From a virus: a stretch of 41,527 nucleotides of DNA. Shown one piece after another: positions 18,302 to 24,924 of this stretch. Location: positions 1-41,527 of the IMG/VR virus record IMGVR_UViG_3300046616_000152. One strand, 5' to 3'. The notes below the pieces were generated by a model that was not told the origin of the DNA, ran no database searches, and was given only the letters and a program-made list of their open reading frames with translations. Position 1 is the first letter of the stretch. Each line of letters begins with the position of its first letter. A program made the position numbers and the translations under genes.

Positions 18302-18552
18302 GCCAGCCTCCCAGCCACCAGTTGCGCATACCCGGCAATGTCCACCCAGTTGTCGGCATAGTGCGGGTCACCGTTCAGGACGCGCGCCACCTTGTGCTGA
18401 ATCATCTCCAGCGCTTCCATCTGGTCGGCGTCGAGCTTTTGCCAGCTTGGGGCAGCACGCATTACGTCCTTCAGGTCTTGCGATATGGCGGCATGGCCGA
18501 CGAACTGGCCGTAGCGCTTGCCGCGTTCTTCCAAAACTGATTCGATAGTCAT
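18298..18552 (-). CDS. DUF6378-like phage protein (84 aa)
   Basis: The start MTIESVLEERGKRYGQFVGH is fixed by a 4-base overlap with ninG. ERGKRYGQFVGHAAISQDLK and the end HYADNWVDIAGYAQLVAGR match a small phage family seen beside replication and recombination genes. The short core DPHYADNWVDIAGYA suggests a MazG-like helical bundle fragment, but the nucleotide-pyrophosphatase metal motif is not evident. The role is unknown. Confidence 0.78.
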   Translation of the reverse strand: MTIESVLEERGKRYGQFVGHAAISQDLKDVMRAAPSWQKLDADQMEALEMIQHKVARVLNGDPHYADNWVDIAGYAQLVAGRLA

Positions 18553-19187
18553 GTGTCCCATCCTTGTTGCTGGCCGAAGTCTGAAATTTCCTGAAGGGAA
18601 CGGTCTTGCAGGCGCTTTTTCATCCGGCGCACCCTCTTGGCGAACACGGCACGCAAACGCTCCAGATACTCGCGGCTGTACTTTGTGACCTTGTTCTGCG
18701 CCCGCAGCCAGTCCAGCTTTTCCTGACCGATGCGGCGGATGATCTCGGGCTCGTACTGGTCGATCCGGCCGCTGTAGAGCTTGTTGCAGATCCAGCAAGC
18801 GGAGTGAATATTCCAGAGGTTGAACCGGACGGCGGTAGCAGCGCCGACACTGCGGAAGTGCGATGCGTGCCACTGGCCGTCCCAACTGGCGGGCTTATCG
18901 CAACTGACGCAACCTAGGCCCTTGCACCTGTCGCGCAGCCTCACATACTCGTTCACCACCTTCTCGGCGCGCTTCTCGAATACGCTGATCTTTTCGATAG
19001 CCTGCAGCTTCTCTTTAACCGCACGGCGCTCCGCCATCTCCCGCTTACGCTGGCTGCGTGCGACATGCGCCTCGGCAAACTTCTGCTGGCACTCGCCCGG
19101 ATGGACGGGCAGCATGGAGTTGAACGGTGTGCACGGCAGGTGGCAGACGCGGCACGCCTTCTCTTTGGGTGGCTTGGTGCTGATCAT
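18549..19187 (-). CDS. ninG: NinG/Rap-type recombination protein
   Basis: The 212-aa protein begins with a zinc-binding pair (CRVCHLPCTPFNSMLPVHPG) and then a long basic helix. CVSCDKPASWDGQWHASHF and HSACWICNKLYSG give the second cysteine/histidine set, a folded HNH-like centre. This is the layout of lambda NinG (Rap), which binds branched DNA and aids recombination. The ATG at 19187 overlaps the upstream stop and gives a normal family length. Confidence 0.92.
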   Translation of the reverse strand: MISTKPPKEKACRVCHLPCTPFNSMLPVHPGECQQKFAEAHVARSQRKREMAERRAVKEKLQAIEKISVFEKRAEKVVNEYVRLRDRCKGLGCVSCDKPASWDGQWHASHFRSVGAATAVRFNLWNIHSACWICNKLYSGRIDQYEPEIIRRIGQEKLDWLRAQNKVTKYSREYLERLRAVFAKRVRRMKKRLQDRSLQEISDFGQQQGWDT

Positions 19188-19762
19188 GCGGCTACCCTTT
19201 CGCAGCGGCGGGCGACTTCTACCAACCATTCAGCCAGGGCAGCCGGCGTATGCTCGCGCTCTGCATGGGTAACCCATGGCTTCAGATTCGTATCGCCGCG
19301 ATACCACCGGCGCGAGCTGCTGATAACGTGCGAAGCCTCACCTAGCGTCATCGGGTAATCCGGCAGGTCGTGGTGCGTGACGCCGACGATGTAGAGAAGC
19401 GTTTTCTTTTCGGCCCGATGCCCCCACCAGTTCTGGCAGATCGGCATCGTCCATCCGCCGTACTCGTCCACCTGGCCCACGGGTGGCAGCTGCTGGTCTG
19501 CCCACAGCTTCGACTTTGCCGGGTGCTCCAGCACGCCGCCGAACTGGCGCAGCATCTTCACCGACCACCTGGCCAAGTCCTTCTCATCGGGCCGCGGCTT
19601 TGCCATATGCGACAGCTGACCCCATGCGCGACAAGGCGGGTGATAGACCGCAGGAGCACCACCAGGCCAGGTGCGCGCATCGCGGGCCATGTCGTACACA
19701 TCCGTGTCTGGCAGCGTCTTGTAGTAGCTGTCAGCGCGGGCGAACAGAATTGCGACAGTCAT
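19184..19762 (-). CDS. Methyltransferase-fold-like phage protein with HPPC motif (192 aa)
   Basis: VYHPPCRAWGQLS (near residue 39) resembles the PPC catalytic loop of cytosine-C5 methyltransferases. GGVLEHPAKSKLW (near 76) resembles the following ENV/EHP strand. The usual glycine-rich SAM-binding motif is not seen at the start, where AILFARADSYYK stands instead. The protein may be a shortened methyltransferase-like fold without catalysis, or a nucleotide-binding relative. It overlaps ninG by 4 bases. Confidence 0.65.
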   Translation of the reverse strand: MTVAILFARADSYYKTLPDTDVYDMARDARTWPGGAPAVYHPPCRAWGQLSHMAKPRPDEKDLARWSVKMLRQFGGVLEHPAKSKLWADQQLPPVGQVDEYGGWTMPICQNWWGHRAEKKTLLYIVGVTHHDLPDYPMTLGEASHVISSSRRWYRGDTNLKPWVTHAEREHTPAALAEWLVEVARRCERVAA

Positions 19763-20021: not shown

Positions 20022-20081
20022 CTAGATCCCTAAGAGGGTTCATAAACATCCAAATACCGTTAACTCCCTATGCAATCCCTT

Positions 20082-20229
20082 GAGCGGACAGACCTAGCCT
20101 TCCTTAGCTAGGCCTTCACATGTCTCGACAATCCCCGTCGCGTTACATGACCCGGTAGCCTTTTCGTTCACAGGTGCTGCCTTCGCCGCCTGCCGGGGTG
20201 TTTCAGAACTTCCTCACAGTTCCCCGCTC
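20082..20229 (-). ncRNA. Candidate structured RNA, multi-helix junction
   Basis: Read on the minus strand, 148 bases fold into a closed multibranch structure. P1 pairs GAGCGG (20224-20229) with CCGCTC (20082-20087). P2 is GAACT/AGTTC (20218-20222 with 20206-20210). P3 pairs ACCCCGG with CCGGGT (20193-20199 with 20150-20155, one bulged C). P4 abuts P3 and has CATGT/ACATG plus inner CGAC/GTCG (20145-20149 with 20119-20123, 20137-20140 with 20126-20129). P5 is a 9-bp stem AGGCCTAGC/GCTAGGTCT (20107-20115 with 20090-20098, one G-U). It lies between primase and a small Cys protein gene with no good coding frame. It could be a leader, a processed sRNA or a cis element. It matches no family I can name. 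Confidence 0.62.
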
Positions 20230-20263
20230 TTCCCTTGCTGCTGCCGTTATTGCTATTCCGACC

Positions 20264-20282
20264 GGCAAGGTGCTTTGTTGCC
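20264..20282 (-). other. Hairpin just after the primase stop
   Basis: A 5-bp stem GGCAA/TTGCC with a 9-base loop begins 7 bases after the primase stop codon and precedes the larger structured RNA. No T-run follows, so it is not a standard terminator. Confidence 0.35.
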
Positions 20283-20288
20283 CCGTGG

Positions 20289-21119
20289 TTAACTCATGGG
20301 GGCGCGCACCTTACCCAGGCTCTGCGCGGCGGCGAACGTGCCCACGCGCTGTGCAAAATCGTTGAAGTCTTCGCCGACGCTAGGGCTCATCCAGTAGGGC
20401 CAGCCGATCTGCTTGGCGACACGCTCACCGGTGCCGCTGGCGTCGTTGTCGGCCAGGATCACGCCGCCCTGCAAAGCGCTGGCGACCTTGACCATGTTCC
20501 CGGCGCTGAAGCACACATGCAGCGTGAACTTGCGCTTGAGGTTTCCAAGGGCCTGGCGGGCGCTCAGTGCGGTCGCGTAGCCTTCGGTGAGGTAATGTGG
20601 GCCGCTGCCGCCCAGCACGAACTGAGCGTGTCCTGAGCGTTGGCCATAGAGAAATTTCTTGTCGCCGGATTCGCTGATCTGCTGCACACCGACGACATCG
20701 CGGCCGATCCGCATAGGGATGAGGCACAGCGGGCCGTTGTCGGTGTCCAGCACATTCGCCACTTCATCGGGGAAGCCCTTGGCAGCGAGATAAGCGTGCG
20801 TGGTAACGCGGCACTGGCGGAGCATGTGACCGGCTTTGTCCGCTGCCTGGGCATTCATGCGGATCGTTTCGCGTGACGCTTCCAAAGCGATCCGGCTGAC
20901 TTCCTGCCGGGCGATCTTGGTCATGCCGGTGTCCTGCCAGAGCGACACCTCGACGGCGGTCGCGTGGTTCTGAACGAAACCATGCGTGCCCATGTACTTG
21001 ACGGCGCCATTGCGGTGCATCGGCTTGTCTACGGTCTTGTAGCGCTTCCACACGCCAACGGGTGGAAGCGTGTCGATGATCACATCGTGCAAGCGGCAGA
21101 AGTCGATGAACGTGGTCAT
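20289..21119 (-). CDS. DNA primase, Toprim domain
   Basis: The 276-aa protein has a C-terminal Toprim domain. The Glu motif is YLTEGYATALSAR (Glu179) and the Asp motif is ILADNDASGTGE (Asp224, Asp226). The N-terminal part (FCRLHDVIIDTLPPVGVWKR) is typical of phage DUF7146-like primases and lacks a clear zinc finger. It would synthesise primers at the phage fork. The ATG at 21119 overlaps the helicase stop (ATGA), so both are made together. Confidence 0.88.
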   Translation of the reverse strand: MTTFIDFCRLHDVIIDTLPPVGVWKRYKTVDKPMHRNGAVKYMGTHGFVQNHATAVEVSLWQDTGMTKIARQEVSRIALEASRETIRMNAQAADKAGHMLRQCRVTTHAYLAAKGFPDEVANVLDTDNGPLCLIPMRIGRDVVGVQQISESGDKKFLYGQRSGHAQFVLGGSGPHYLTEGYATALSARQALGNLKRKFTLHVCFSAGNMVKVASALQGGVILADNDASGTGERVAKQIGWPYWMSPSVGEDFNDFAQRVGTFAAAQSLGKVRAPMS

Positions 21120-22618
21120 GCTGGCACTCCCGCGGAGACTGGTACCGATTGGCGCGACTTGGCCCAAGCAATGGCGCGCGAGGTGATCCACTTCGAGACT
21201 TCACGGTTTGGCGGCTTCATGGCATCGGACATGCCGCGCGGCCACACGCCAAACTTCTCCTTGTATTTGTTGTCAGCCCAGCCCGGCTTGTATGCCCGGC
21301 TCTCGGCGTAGTAGCGCAGCTGGGAGTACCAGTCTTGCTTAAGCTCTTTGGCAGCACCGGCGCCCTTGAGTTCTTCCATCTCACCTGGCACGGCGGATAC
21401 AGCGTTACGGCGCTCACGGACGTGGCCGCAGGATGGGCACATGTCGGCGTTGCCCGGCCACAGACGCAAGCATTTCGGGCACTTCGATGCCTCTTTCTCG
21501 TTCTGCGTCGGCTCTTTCTTCGCCTTTTCCTTGCCGTCATCAAGTGCGGACACGCCGTTGTCGAAAACGTCATCCCACTCTTCACGGAAGCGAAGGTAGT
21601 TGCCTGAATGGTCCAGCCACAGCGCAAATTCCTTGCCAGGATGCGAGCGCATGACGCGGCCCATCTGCTGGATGTGCGAGCTGAGCGACTTGCTGAAGGG
21701 ACGGGCCGACACGCCAATCTCGACATCGGACACATCGAAACCCTTGGTCAGGATGTCGGTTGCGATCAGGCCGTGAATCGAGGAATCAGGCTTGGCAAAC
21801 TCTTTCACCGCGTCCTGCTTGTACTGGTCATCATCCTTGTACGACAGGCTCACGAAGTTGTAGCCTGCCTCGGCGAACTTGACGGCCAGATCAGCGCCGT
21901 GGGCGACACCGGCGCAAAAGACAACCGTCTTGCGCGGGCCACCAAAGACCTCGTGCGTTTTCTTGACCCACTCGGTCACGATGTCGCCGGTGATCTTCAG
22001 GCCGCGCTCGGTCACCTCATCCTGCGCCCACTCCCCGGCCACCTTCTTTGCGCCGGTCATGTCGATCTCCTTGGCGACATAGACGCGCAGAGGAACAAGG
22101 CGCTTCTTCTCCACCAGTTGCCCGGTGGTCACGCTGGAAATGACCTTGGTGTAAATCTTGCCGAGGCCCTTGGTGAACGGCGTGGCGGTTAGGCCGACGA
22201 CCTTGACGCCAGGGTTGTTCTTGATGAATTCAATCGTGGCCTTGCGCGTCTGGTGTGCCTCGTCCACGATCAACACCTTCAAGCCCGGGAAGCTGCCGCG
22301 CTTTTCCAGGGTCTGCGCGCTGCAGATCTGAATGTGCTCGTAAGGGCGGAAGCGCCAGTGGCCCGACTGCATGACGCCGTGGTCAATGTTGTACTTCTGC
22401 AGACGCGCGCTGGTCTGGTCGCACAACACCACGCGGTCCAGCAACATGGCGGCACGGTTGCCGCGCTCGGCGCATGCCTGCAGCAATGCGATTGCCATCT
22501 CGGTCTTGCCTGCGCCGGTAGGTGCAACAAGAATCTGCGAGCGGTGGCCTTCGAGAAAGCCATCACGCAGCAAGTCGAGAATGCCCGATTGAAAGTCGTA
22601 CAACTGAAGTTCTTGCAT
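21116..22618 (-). CDS. SF2 DEAH-type helicase
   Basis: The 500-aa protein shows motif I APTGAGKTE (residues 32-40), motif II VDEAH (118-122), motif III TATP (144-147) and motif VI QQMGRVMR near residue 325. After the helicase core comes a zinc ribbon (CPKCLRLWPGNADMCPSCGH) and a helical tail. This is the DEAD/DEAH replicative or recombination helicase found beside phage primases. It follows the ParB-like gene by 2 bases and overlaps primase. Confidence 0.92.
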   Translation of the reverse strand: MQELQLYDFQSGILDLLRDGFLEGHRSQILVAPTGAGKTEMAIALLQACAERGNRAAMLLDRVVLCDQTSARLQKYNIDHGVMQSGHWRFRPYEHIQICSAQTLEKRGSFPGLKVLIVDEAHQTRKATIEFIKNNPGVKVVGLTATPFTKGLGKIYTKVISSVTTGQLVEKKRLVPLRVYVAKEIDMTGAKKVAGEWAQDEVTERGLKITGDIVTEWVKKTHEVFGGPRKTVVFCAGVAHGADLAVKFAEAGYNFVSLSYKDDDQYKQDAVKEFAKPDSSIHGLIATDILTKGFDVSDVEIGVSARPFSKSLSSHIQQMGRVMRSHPGKEFALWLDHSGNYLRFREEWDDVFDNGVSALDDGKEKAKKEPTQNEKEASKCPKCLRLWPGNADMCPSCGHVRERRNAVSAVPGEMEELKGAGAAKELKQDWYSQLRYYAESRAYKPGWADNKYKEKFGVWPRGMSDAMKPPNREVSKWITSRAIAWAKSRQSVPVSAGVPA

Positions 22619-24202: not shown

Positions 24203-24409
24203 TCAGGCTTCCTGCGCATCGAGGCCGAGAAGCCGCTCGCGGCAACCGGGTTCGGCTTTGAGCTCGCCCGCGGTGAGGCGCTCAATTTGAAGTTGACGCT
24301 TGTCAGGCGGAAAGTCAGACCAGCCAGCTACGGACGCCTGGGTGATCCCCAGTGCCTCAGCTGCCTTCTGTTGGGTCTGGTAATGCTTGATGACAGATTC
24401 GGTACGCAT
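24203..24409 (-). CDS. cro: Cro-like repressor
   Basis: The 68-aa product reads SVIKHYQTQQKAAEALGITQ, ASVAGWSDFPPDKRQLQIER, the pattern of Cro proteins (helix-turn-helix, then a short dimer strand). It is divergent from the cI-like gene with operators between. The -10-like TATAAA ends about 7 bases before the ATG and only a weak TGGGG precedes it, so the mRNA may be leaderless. An ATG 7 bases upstream, inside the promoter, is unlikely to be the start. Confidence 0.85.
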   Translation of the reverse strand: MRTESVIKHYQTQQKAAEALGITQASVAGWSDFPPDKRQLQIERLTAGELKAEPGCRERLLGLDAQEA

Positions 24410-24416
24410 GCCCCAT

Positions 24417-24444
24417 TTTATAGGCAAGCCAATATATGTCGCAA
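24417..24444 (-). promoter_or_regulatory. Leftward early promoter for cro
   Basis: On the minus strand TTGCGA (24439-24444) and TATAAA (24417-24422) are 16 bases apart. Operator 1 overlaps the spacer and -10. The expected start lies next to the cro ATG. Confidence 0.6.
24420..24433. promoter_or_regulatory. Operator 1 (cro side)
   Basis: ATAGGCAAGCCAAT is an imperfect palindrome that belongs to the series found again at 26.65-26.73 kb. It covers the cro promoter -10 region. Confidence 0.6.
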
Positions 24445-24454
24445 GTCTTAATTC

Positions 24455-24468
24455 ATAGGTGCGCCAAT
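24455..24468. promoter_or_regulatory. Operator 2 (cI side)
   Basis: ATAGGTGCGCCAAT lies 35 bp centre to centre from operator 1 and just before TAATAT (24468-24473), a possible -10 for the cI-like gene. Confidence 0.6.
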
Positions 24469-24498
24469 AATATTTGGCTATCGACTCGGCAGAATCCG

Positions 24499-24924
24499 AT
24501 GATGGAAACCATCGGGTCACGAATCAAGGGGCTGCGTAAGTCCAAACACCTGACCCAGGGTGAGTTGGCTAAGCGAATAGGCATCAAGCAGCCAAGCCTG
24601 TCTCTCATCGAATCGGGCGGCACCGTCACGATTGCCGGCACCACACTTGCTGCGCTGTGCAGTGAGTTGACGACGACCCCGAGTTTCATCATGCTCGGCG
24701 TTGAGGATGGCGACGCGCATGAAACCGCCATGCAAGAGGCTGAACTTATTGCCATCTTTCGTGCGTTACCGCGCCAGGCCCAGGATGCACTGATCCACTC
24801 AGCCCGCACGGTTAAGGAGGCGTTGTCCACTTCCAGCGCCTGGGTCAAGCCGGTGAAGAATGCGCCACCCGTCGAATTAGGCGGGTCGGCACAGAAACCT
24901 GCTCGCCGCACCGGGGGGCACTGA
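24499..24924 (+). CDS. cI: CI-like XRE repressor (141 aa)
   Basis: The N-terminal HTH is clear: IGSRIKGLRKSKHLTQGELA, KRIGIKQPSLSLIESGG (residues 5-41). The C-terminal part is helical (AELIAIFRALPRQAQDALIH) and there is no LexA/CI-type Ser-Lys peptidase domain, so induction by RecA cleavage is unlikely in the lambda manner. Two ATG codons in a row (24499, 24502) are possible starts. It is divergent from cro with two operators between them and heads a five-gene plus-strand operon. Confidence 0.88.
   Translation: MMETIGSRIKGLRKSKHLTQGELAKRIGIKQPSLSLIESGGTVTIAGTTLAALCSELTTTPSFIMLGVEDGDAHETAMQEAELIAIFRALPRQAQDALIHSARTVKEALSTSSAWVKPVKNAPPVELGGSAQKPARRTGGH

What the first reader, a model, noticed from the sequence alone, without database searches (positions are those of the whole stretch)
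20082..20229. Compact five-helix RNA candidate between primase and a small zinc-like gene
Read on the minus strand, five stems fit together with very few unpaired joints. A 6-bp (7 with a wobble) closing stem encloses P2, P3, P4 and P5. P3 and P4 abut without a linker, P5 is a 9-bp stem with a purine loop (TAAGGAAG), and P5 joins P1 by 2 bases. Nothing in the region codes. A closed multi-stem fold of this sort is unlikely by chance and I can match it to no RNA family. It may be a 5' leader that controls the downstream genes (Cys protein, methyltransferase-like, NinG), a processed sRNA, or a decoy of host machinery.
Basis: partly seen in the sequence, partly recalled or inferred. Interest (0 to 1): 0.85.

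Follow-up and report, generated by a model that had tools for sequence, protein, structure and literature searches.

The report
Pseudoknotted phage RNA with self-matching repeat
The flagged stretch is part of a roughly 200-base folded RNA that many bacterial viruses carry beside their DNA-replication genes; it belongs to a catalogued RNA family whose function I found described nowhere, and it carries an unexplained short repeat that stays matched to itself as the viruses diverge.

Summary
A real structured RNA is present, but it is not unmatched to any family and not the five-helix fold drawn. Positions 20150-20272 (minus strand) hit Rfam RF02932 "Betaproteobacteria-1 RNA" (78.5 bits, cutoff 49.4). 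It is built on P1, P2, P3 and P5, a 3' hairpin P8, and three covarying pseudoknots (PK1, PK2, P4).

New feature: a 5-12 nt direct repeat, R1 in the P5 loop and R2 at the 3' edge. It is arbitrary in sequence between phages but matched within each one (mean 6.8 nt against 4.5 for swapped partners; confirmed in 25 new sequences). No complement of R is enriched in the RNA or its flanks.

Context: single copy in 29/29 phage contigs, usually in the early operon beside replication genes; stand-alone copies also sit in host chromosomes. Best mechanistic guess, unproven: the R1 loop pairs with template-strand DNA at R2, as in ColE1 RNAII, forming an R-loop that helps start replication. Rivals: put-like antitermination; a free-standing RNA.

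The parts
20073..20272 (-). Whole conserved RNA (about 200 nt), from the first base of the P1 hairpin to the end of repeat R2
   Evidence: RF02932 match 20150-20272 plus a 3' half conserved in phage AP1 and about 150 homologues
20233..20271 (-). P1 hairpin: 5' strand about 20263-20271, 3' strand about 20233-20241
   Evidence: 79% canonical against 54% shuffled; 57 double changes on the tree
20195..20225 (-). P2 hairpin: 20222-20225 with 20195-20198
   Evidence: 94% canonical against 52% shuffled; 61 double changes
20216..20244 (-). PK1: P1-loop 20241-20244 with P2-loop 20216-20219
   Evidence: 98% canonical, 22 double changes
20166..20209 (-). PK2: P2-loop 20206-20209 with 20166-20169
   Evidence: 83% canonical against 45% shuffled; 39 double changes
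20171..20192 (-). P3: 20189-20192 with 20171-20174; interleaved with P4
   Evidence: helix seen in homologues (e.g. ATCGG/CCGAT in L090, AATTGG/CCAATT in L101); window register read by eye; partly scored
20154..20181 (-). P4 (H-type pseudoknot with P3): 20176-20181 with 20154-20159
   Evidence: 99% canonical; four pair types at one pair, three at another; 49 double changes. One mismatch (C-A) in the window copy
20119..20149 (-).
   Evidence: 83% canonical against 57% shuffled; 30 double changes
20129..20135 (-). Repeat R1, GGGATTG, in the P5 loop
20090..20115 (-).
   Evidence: alignment-free pairing 6.83 against 5.72 for swapped partners, z 9.7
20084..20141 (-). PK3 (tentative): 20139-20141 with 20084-20086
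   Evidence: seen by eye between sequence classes; swap test not supportive
20073..20079 (-). Repeat R2, GGGATTG, at the 3' edge of the RNA
20289..21191 (-). Toprim DNA primase ending about 17 nt upstream of the RNA
   Evidence: phrog_2249 E 9e-28; same arrangement in 29 loci
21116..22618 (-). ResIII/DEAD helicase
   Evidence: phrog_16 E 8e-74; PF04851
22621..23427 (-). ParB-like protein
   Evidence: phrog_4715 E 4e-22
18549..19229 (-). NinG, downstream in the same operon
   Evidence: PF05766 E 1.5e-41

Best explanation
What it is (confidence about 0.97): a member of Rfam RF02932, a family for which I found no described function, whose full-length form is a multi-pseudoknot RNA of about 200 nt with a matched direct repeat R1/R2. 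It lies in the early operon of temperate phages beside the replication genes. How it works (inferred, confidence about 0.35): while being transcribed the RNA folds and displays R1 in the P5 loop. As RNA polymerase leaves R2, R1 (same sequence as R2) pairs with the template DNA strand at R2. This anchors the transcript to its own gene and seeds an R-loop in the G-skewed, AT-rich stretch that follows. The R-loop opens DNA and/or supplies a primer for initiation of replication of the element, as ColE1 RNAII does through its G-stretch and the C-stretch of the template. Shown here: the fold, the R1=R2 identity, the genomic context and the downstream base composition. Inferred: the RNA-DNA pairing, the R-loop and the replication role.
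For: Family. Fold: compensatory double changes on a tree, PK1 22, PK2 39, P4 49; slid controls much lower except P4 at +3 (83%). R1=R2: longest common match 6.8 nt against 4.47 +- 0.10 with partners swapped, 86 distinct loops; 6.56 against 4.52 +- 0.22 in 25 independent sequences; joint identical-to-identical changes on the tree at all three columns examined. No complement of R enriched in the RNA, 250 nt upstream or 280 nt downstream. The longest R words occur exactly twice in their phage genome, e.g. CCAAAAAGCAAC in G006 and G008. R is purine-rich (0.74); the 60 nt after R2 are G-skewed (0.23 against 0.05 upstream of ORFs, p 3e-8), purine-rich (0.60 against 0.54) and AT-rich (GC 0.37 against locus mean 0.51). 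Beside replication genes in many loci; single copy in 29/29 contigs. Precedent: the rG stretch of the ColE1 transcript with the dC stretch of the template is essential for the R-loop, and R-loops prime T4 origins (PMC4412123).
Against: GC-skew minima do not consistently coincide with the RNA. The wobble-asymmetry test expected if R1 RNA pairs with the complement of R2 was inconclusive (right flank 17 against 15). Stand-alone chromosomal copies are in regions with no known autonomous replication. The RNA is found with at least three different replication modules, some with their own initiator. R can be as short as 4-5 nt. A purine-rich stretch after R2 partly overlaps ribosome-binding sites of next genes, and the control ORF starts were called crudely.
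Confidence: 0.4

Rival explanations
1. Nascent-RNA processive antiterminator (works like HK022 put): the RNA folds on RNA polymerase and lets it read through terminators in the long early-late operon.
For: Terminase large subunit lies on the same strand and 0.7-11 kb downstream in 16 of 17 contigs with a phrog_2 hit, also in AP1 and MW202545; no terminator directly after the RNA in most loci; no single protein family accompanies it, so a host machine such as RNA polymerase is a plausible partner; in many phages it sits near the start of the operon after cro. put RNAs work without dedicated proteins (PMC9378689).
Against: In 32 of 88 loci a strong terminator lies immediately UPSTREAM of the RNA, where a nascent antiterminator cannot act; few same-strand terminators follow for kilobases; R1=R2 is unexplained; stand-alone chromosomal copies; HK022 has two put sites while this RNA is single copy.
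Confidence: 0.2
2. Free-standing trans-acting RNA (bound by a host or phage protein), excised from the operon transcript; R1 and R2 are needed for maturation, for example as twin sites of one process.
For: Large conserved pseudoknotted fold, variable position and neighbours, stand-alone copies in host islands near restriction-modification and toxin-antitoxin-like genes.
Against: R words are arbitrary between phages yet matched within one, which a fixed-specificity protein does not explain; no promoter of its own and rarely a terminator directly 3' (4 of 88).
Confidence: 0.25
3. RNA-guided mobile or recombining element: R1 is a short guide and R2 the target-side copy next to the insertion, as with bridge RNAs of IS110 elements.
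For: Guide-like length (5-12 nt), identity with the flanking sequence, sporadic occurrence (7 of 399 genomes sampled from the order of Burkholderia sp. Bp9142), degenerate chromosomal relics (L226, L207).
Against: No recombinase or nuclease family accompanies it; position after the primase is fixed in many phages; no empty site found; the only relative in 65 genomes with the full flanking locus also has the RNA.
Confidence: 0.08

Closest known systems
Rfam RF02932 Betaproteobacteria-1 RNA
   Same: Same RNA: all 120 model positions match, 78.5 bits against a cutoff of 49.4
   Different: Rfam's model stops before P5, P8, R1 and R2, has no pseudoknots, and draws P4 as a simple hairpin; no function found described
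ColE1 RNAII replication preprimer
   Same: Loop sequence identical to the non-template strand at a downstream site, so it can pair with the template; G-rich, R-loop-prone surroundings; linked to replication
   Different: No homology; repeat words are arbitrary rather than G-tracts; no antisense RNAI identified; located in phage operons; no origin shown
HK022 putL/putR antiterminator RNAs
   Same: Structured RNA in a lambdoid-type early operon, no dedicated protein
   Different: put is about 70 nt with two stem-loops and two copies per phage; this is about 200 nt with three pseudoknots and a single copy
IS110 bridge RNA / seekRNA (from memory)
   Same: Loop-borne short guide-like sequence matching adjacent DNA
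   Different: No IS110-type recombinase or element ends seen

Membership tests
RF02932 Betaproteobacteria-1 | Covariance-model score above the curated cutoff over the full model | tested here: met
   78.5 bits against 49.4, positions 1-120 of 120
RF02932 Betaproteobacteria-1 | The three consensus helices pair in the window copy | tested here: met
   P1, P2 and P4 pair, with a few mismatches marked in the cmscan alignment
RF02932 Betaproteobacteria-1 | Expressed as an RNA (typed 'Gene; sRNA') | not testable with these tools
   No transcript data available
ColE1 RNAII-type preprimer | Loop of the transcript can pair with a downstream template-strand stretch | tested here: met
   R1=R2 direct repeat; pairing itself not shown
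ColE1 RNAII-type preprimer | Origin of replication directly downstream | tested here: inconclusive
   GC-skew not consistent; AT-rich, G-skewed downstream DNA
ColE1 RNAII-type preprimer | RNase H-processed primer and antisense RNAI | not testable with these tools
   Needs experiment
HK022 put RNA | About 70 nt, two stem-loops, two sites per phage | tested here: not met
   About 200 nt with pseudoknots; single copy in 29/29 contigs; put features from PMC9378689
IS110 bridge RNA | Encoded beside an IS110-type recombinase | tested here: inconclusive
   No conserved protein neighbour in 90 loci; recombinase profiles not searched specifically

The most novel reading that the evidence does not exclude
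A widespread phage RNA class that recognises its own gene: a loop word R1 pairs with the DNA strand at R2 to build a programmed R-loop that starts replication, with the R1/R2 word freely changing between phages like a private key.
Probability: 0.3. Interest if true: 0.9.

Novelty: new member of a known kind. Interest (0 to 1): 0.6.

Why it matters
The RNA family is in Rfam with no function that I could find described. This work gives its likely full length, three covarying pseudoknots, its home in phage early operons beside replication genes, and a strong, testable clue: a matched internal repeat whose only likely partner is its own DNA. If the R-loop model holds, it would be an RNA-encoded, sequence-private way to start phage DNA replication. 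If not, the repeat still constrains any other model.

Tried and rejected
Alternative pairing switch (R1 and R2 competing for one RNA partner): no complement of R in the RNA or flanks above swapped controls. Third target site of R in the phage genome: the longest words occur only twice. Wobble-asymmetry test for RNA-DNA pairing: first looked striking (G>A 61 against A>G 3), but the excess sits at one fixed structural position and the right flank is symmetric, so not used as evidence. PK3: suggestive by eye, failed the swap test. GC-skew as origin marker: inconsistent and confounded by gene strand. Own promoter of the RNA: none better than shuffled. Empty-site search in the genus of Burkholderia sp. 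Bp9142: no empty site, only one relative with the locus and it has the RNA. Plasmids: no convincing matches. Literature: no paper in the held library names the family.

Full report
OBSERVATION. The five stems exist as the best computed fold of exactly 20082-20229(-), -58.1 kcal/mol, z -3.1, but the signal drops to z -1.25 when flanks are included. cmscan places Rfam RF02932 (Betaproteobacteria-1 RNA) at 20150-20272(-), 78.5 bits, all 120 model positions.

HOMOLOGUES. Acidovorax phage AP1 has the same RNA right after its primase gene, not annotated as a feature, and the similarity continues about 75 nt beyond the Rfam model, through P5 and P8. Loci around relatives of the window primase gave about 18 further copies, some 3' of the primase and some about 3 kb upstream of it. 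A later scan with a pattern for the 3' half alone returned 29 scorable new loci: 28 have the CGGGT junction directly upstream, and the 5' half is present wherever enough upstream sequence is held; one (L328) is a chance match. The two halves are one RNA.

FOLD. On 81 non-redundant homologues the conserved structure is P1; P2; PK1 between the P1 and P2 loops; PK2 between the P2 loop and the segment after P3; P3 interleaved with P4 (an H-type pseudoknot); P5; and P8. Double compensatory changes counted by parsimony on a tree built without the tested columns: P1 57, P2 61, PK1 22, PK2 39, P4 49, P5 30. Sliding the 3' partner lowers pairing strongly in nearly every case (P4 at +3 stays at 83%). 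The alignment was not fitted to the structure. Caveats: the core pattern fixes some P4 positions (the free ones vary and compensate, and one search shows compensated changes at a position the pattern had fixed), P3 was only partly scored, and PK3 (P5 loop with the segment after P8) is suggestive by eye but fails a partner-swap test.

THE REPEAT. A short word R1 in the P5 loop recurs as R2 just 3' of P8; in the window both are GGGATTG (20135-20129 and 20079-20073). Across 86 distinct loops the longest common word averages 6.8 nt against 4.47 +- 0.10 when partners are swapped between phages, and 6.56 against 4.52 +- 0.22 in 25 new distinct sequences. Words differ widely (AAAAGCAA, GAGCAG, TCCAGCAT, GGTTCATG, CAGGAATC, GTGCCATA), so a protein of fixed specificity is an unlikely cause. 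No complement of R is enriched in the RNA or its flanks, and the longest words are present only as R1 and R2 in their genomes. The remaining partner is the complementary DNA strand of the locus, or an antisense transcript.

CONTEXT. All 29 phage contigs tested hold exactly one copy. The window is lambdoid in layout on the minus strand: P22-type Cro (24203-24520), ParB-like, ResIII/DEAD helicase, Toprim primase, the RNA, a small Cys-containing ORF, phrog_12600, NinG, later TerL. In 29 of 90 non-redundant loci the primase homologue ends a median 17 nt before the RNA; in about 8 the RNA instead precedes the ParB-helicase-primase cassette; others have the RNA after a Cro-like gene, upstream of a replication-initiation-type gene (phrog_270), or upstream of a large primase/helicase-like protein. 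TerL is on the same strand and downstream in 16 of 17 contigs (G014 is the exception). A long-P5 subfamily lies in chromosomes (Burkholderia, Thauera, Azonexus, Deefgea, Paraburkholderia and others) without a conserved neighbour, with degenerate copies. Only 7 of 399 genomes sampled from the order of one host carry it.

MECHANISM. I commit to a ColE1-RNAII-like model: nascent R1 pairs with template DNA at R2 and seeds an R-loop that assists replication initiation. Support: the repeat logic, the neighbours, and the composition after R2 (G-skew 0.23 against 0.05 before ORF starts, p 3e-8; purine 0.60 against 0.54; GC 0.37 against 0.51). The ColE1 precedent is from PMC4412123. Against: GC skew does not mark the RNA as an origin, the wobble test was inconclusive, and the chromosomal copies are unexplained. 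Confidence in the mechanism is about 0.35. put-like antitermination (0.2) fits the operon position but not the terminator that directly precedes the RNA in 32 of 88 loci against 37 of 961 random windows, nor the repeat. A free-standing RNA (0.25) and an RNA-guided mobile element (0.08) remain.

NOVELTY. The sequence is a member of a known Rfam family, so the label is 'new member of a known kind'. What appears new, as far as the tools show, is the family's full length, the pseudoknots, the phage replication-gene context and the R1/R2 repeat. A 2017 survey of candidate structured RNAs that I looked for as a possible source was not held in the library, so I cannot say whether earlier authors noted any of these.

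Noticed in passing
L083, L088, L090, L091, L102, L108, L134, L161, L188 and others, within about 130 nt 5' of the RNA: A strong intrinsic terminator with 12-14 bp arms, often enclosing a second hairpin, abuts the 5' end of the RNA in 32 of 88 loci (37 of 961 random windows; p 5e-19).
   Followed up: partly
G038 (Paraburkholderia metrosideri): L207, L226 and C2:174663-174782: Three chromosomal copies of the RNA, one below the Rfam cutoff with a broken 5' domain (L226), another lacking the R2 end (L207).
   Followed up: partly
L208 / L294 (two Burkholderia species): Stand-alone RNA followed on the same strand by a gene whose product begins MLNxNEFLYFAYGSNM, resembling gamma-glutamylcyclotransferases (motif read by eye); about 1.1 kb locus 82% identical.
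   Followed up: partly
L310 (Deefgea), L308 (Comamonadaceae), L218 (Burkholderiaceae MAG): Chromosomal copies sit near restriction-like, type I RM-like and Xre/HipA-like genes (read by eye from sequence), i.e. hypervariable islands.
   Followed up: no
alignment columns 172 and 269 (first base after CGGGT and after GGCTAGGT): These two bases also co-vary as identical bases across homologues (MI 0.82), a possible leftward extension of the R1/R2 relation or a subfamily effect.
   Followed up: no
window 19184-19762 (-): 192-aa ORF matches phrog_12600 (E 3e-67), unknown function, not a recognised methyltransferase in Pfam.
   Followed up: no
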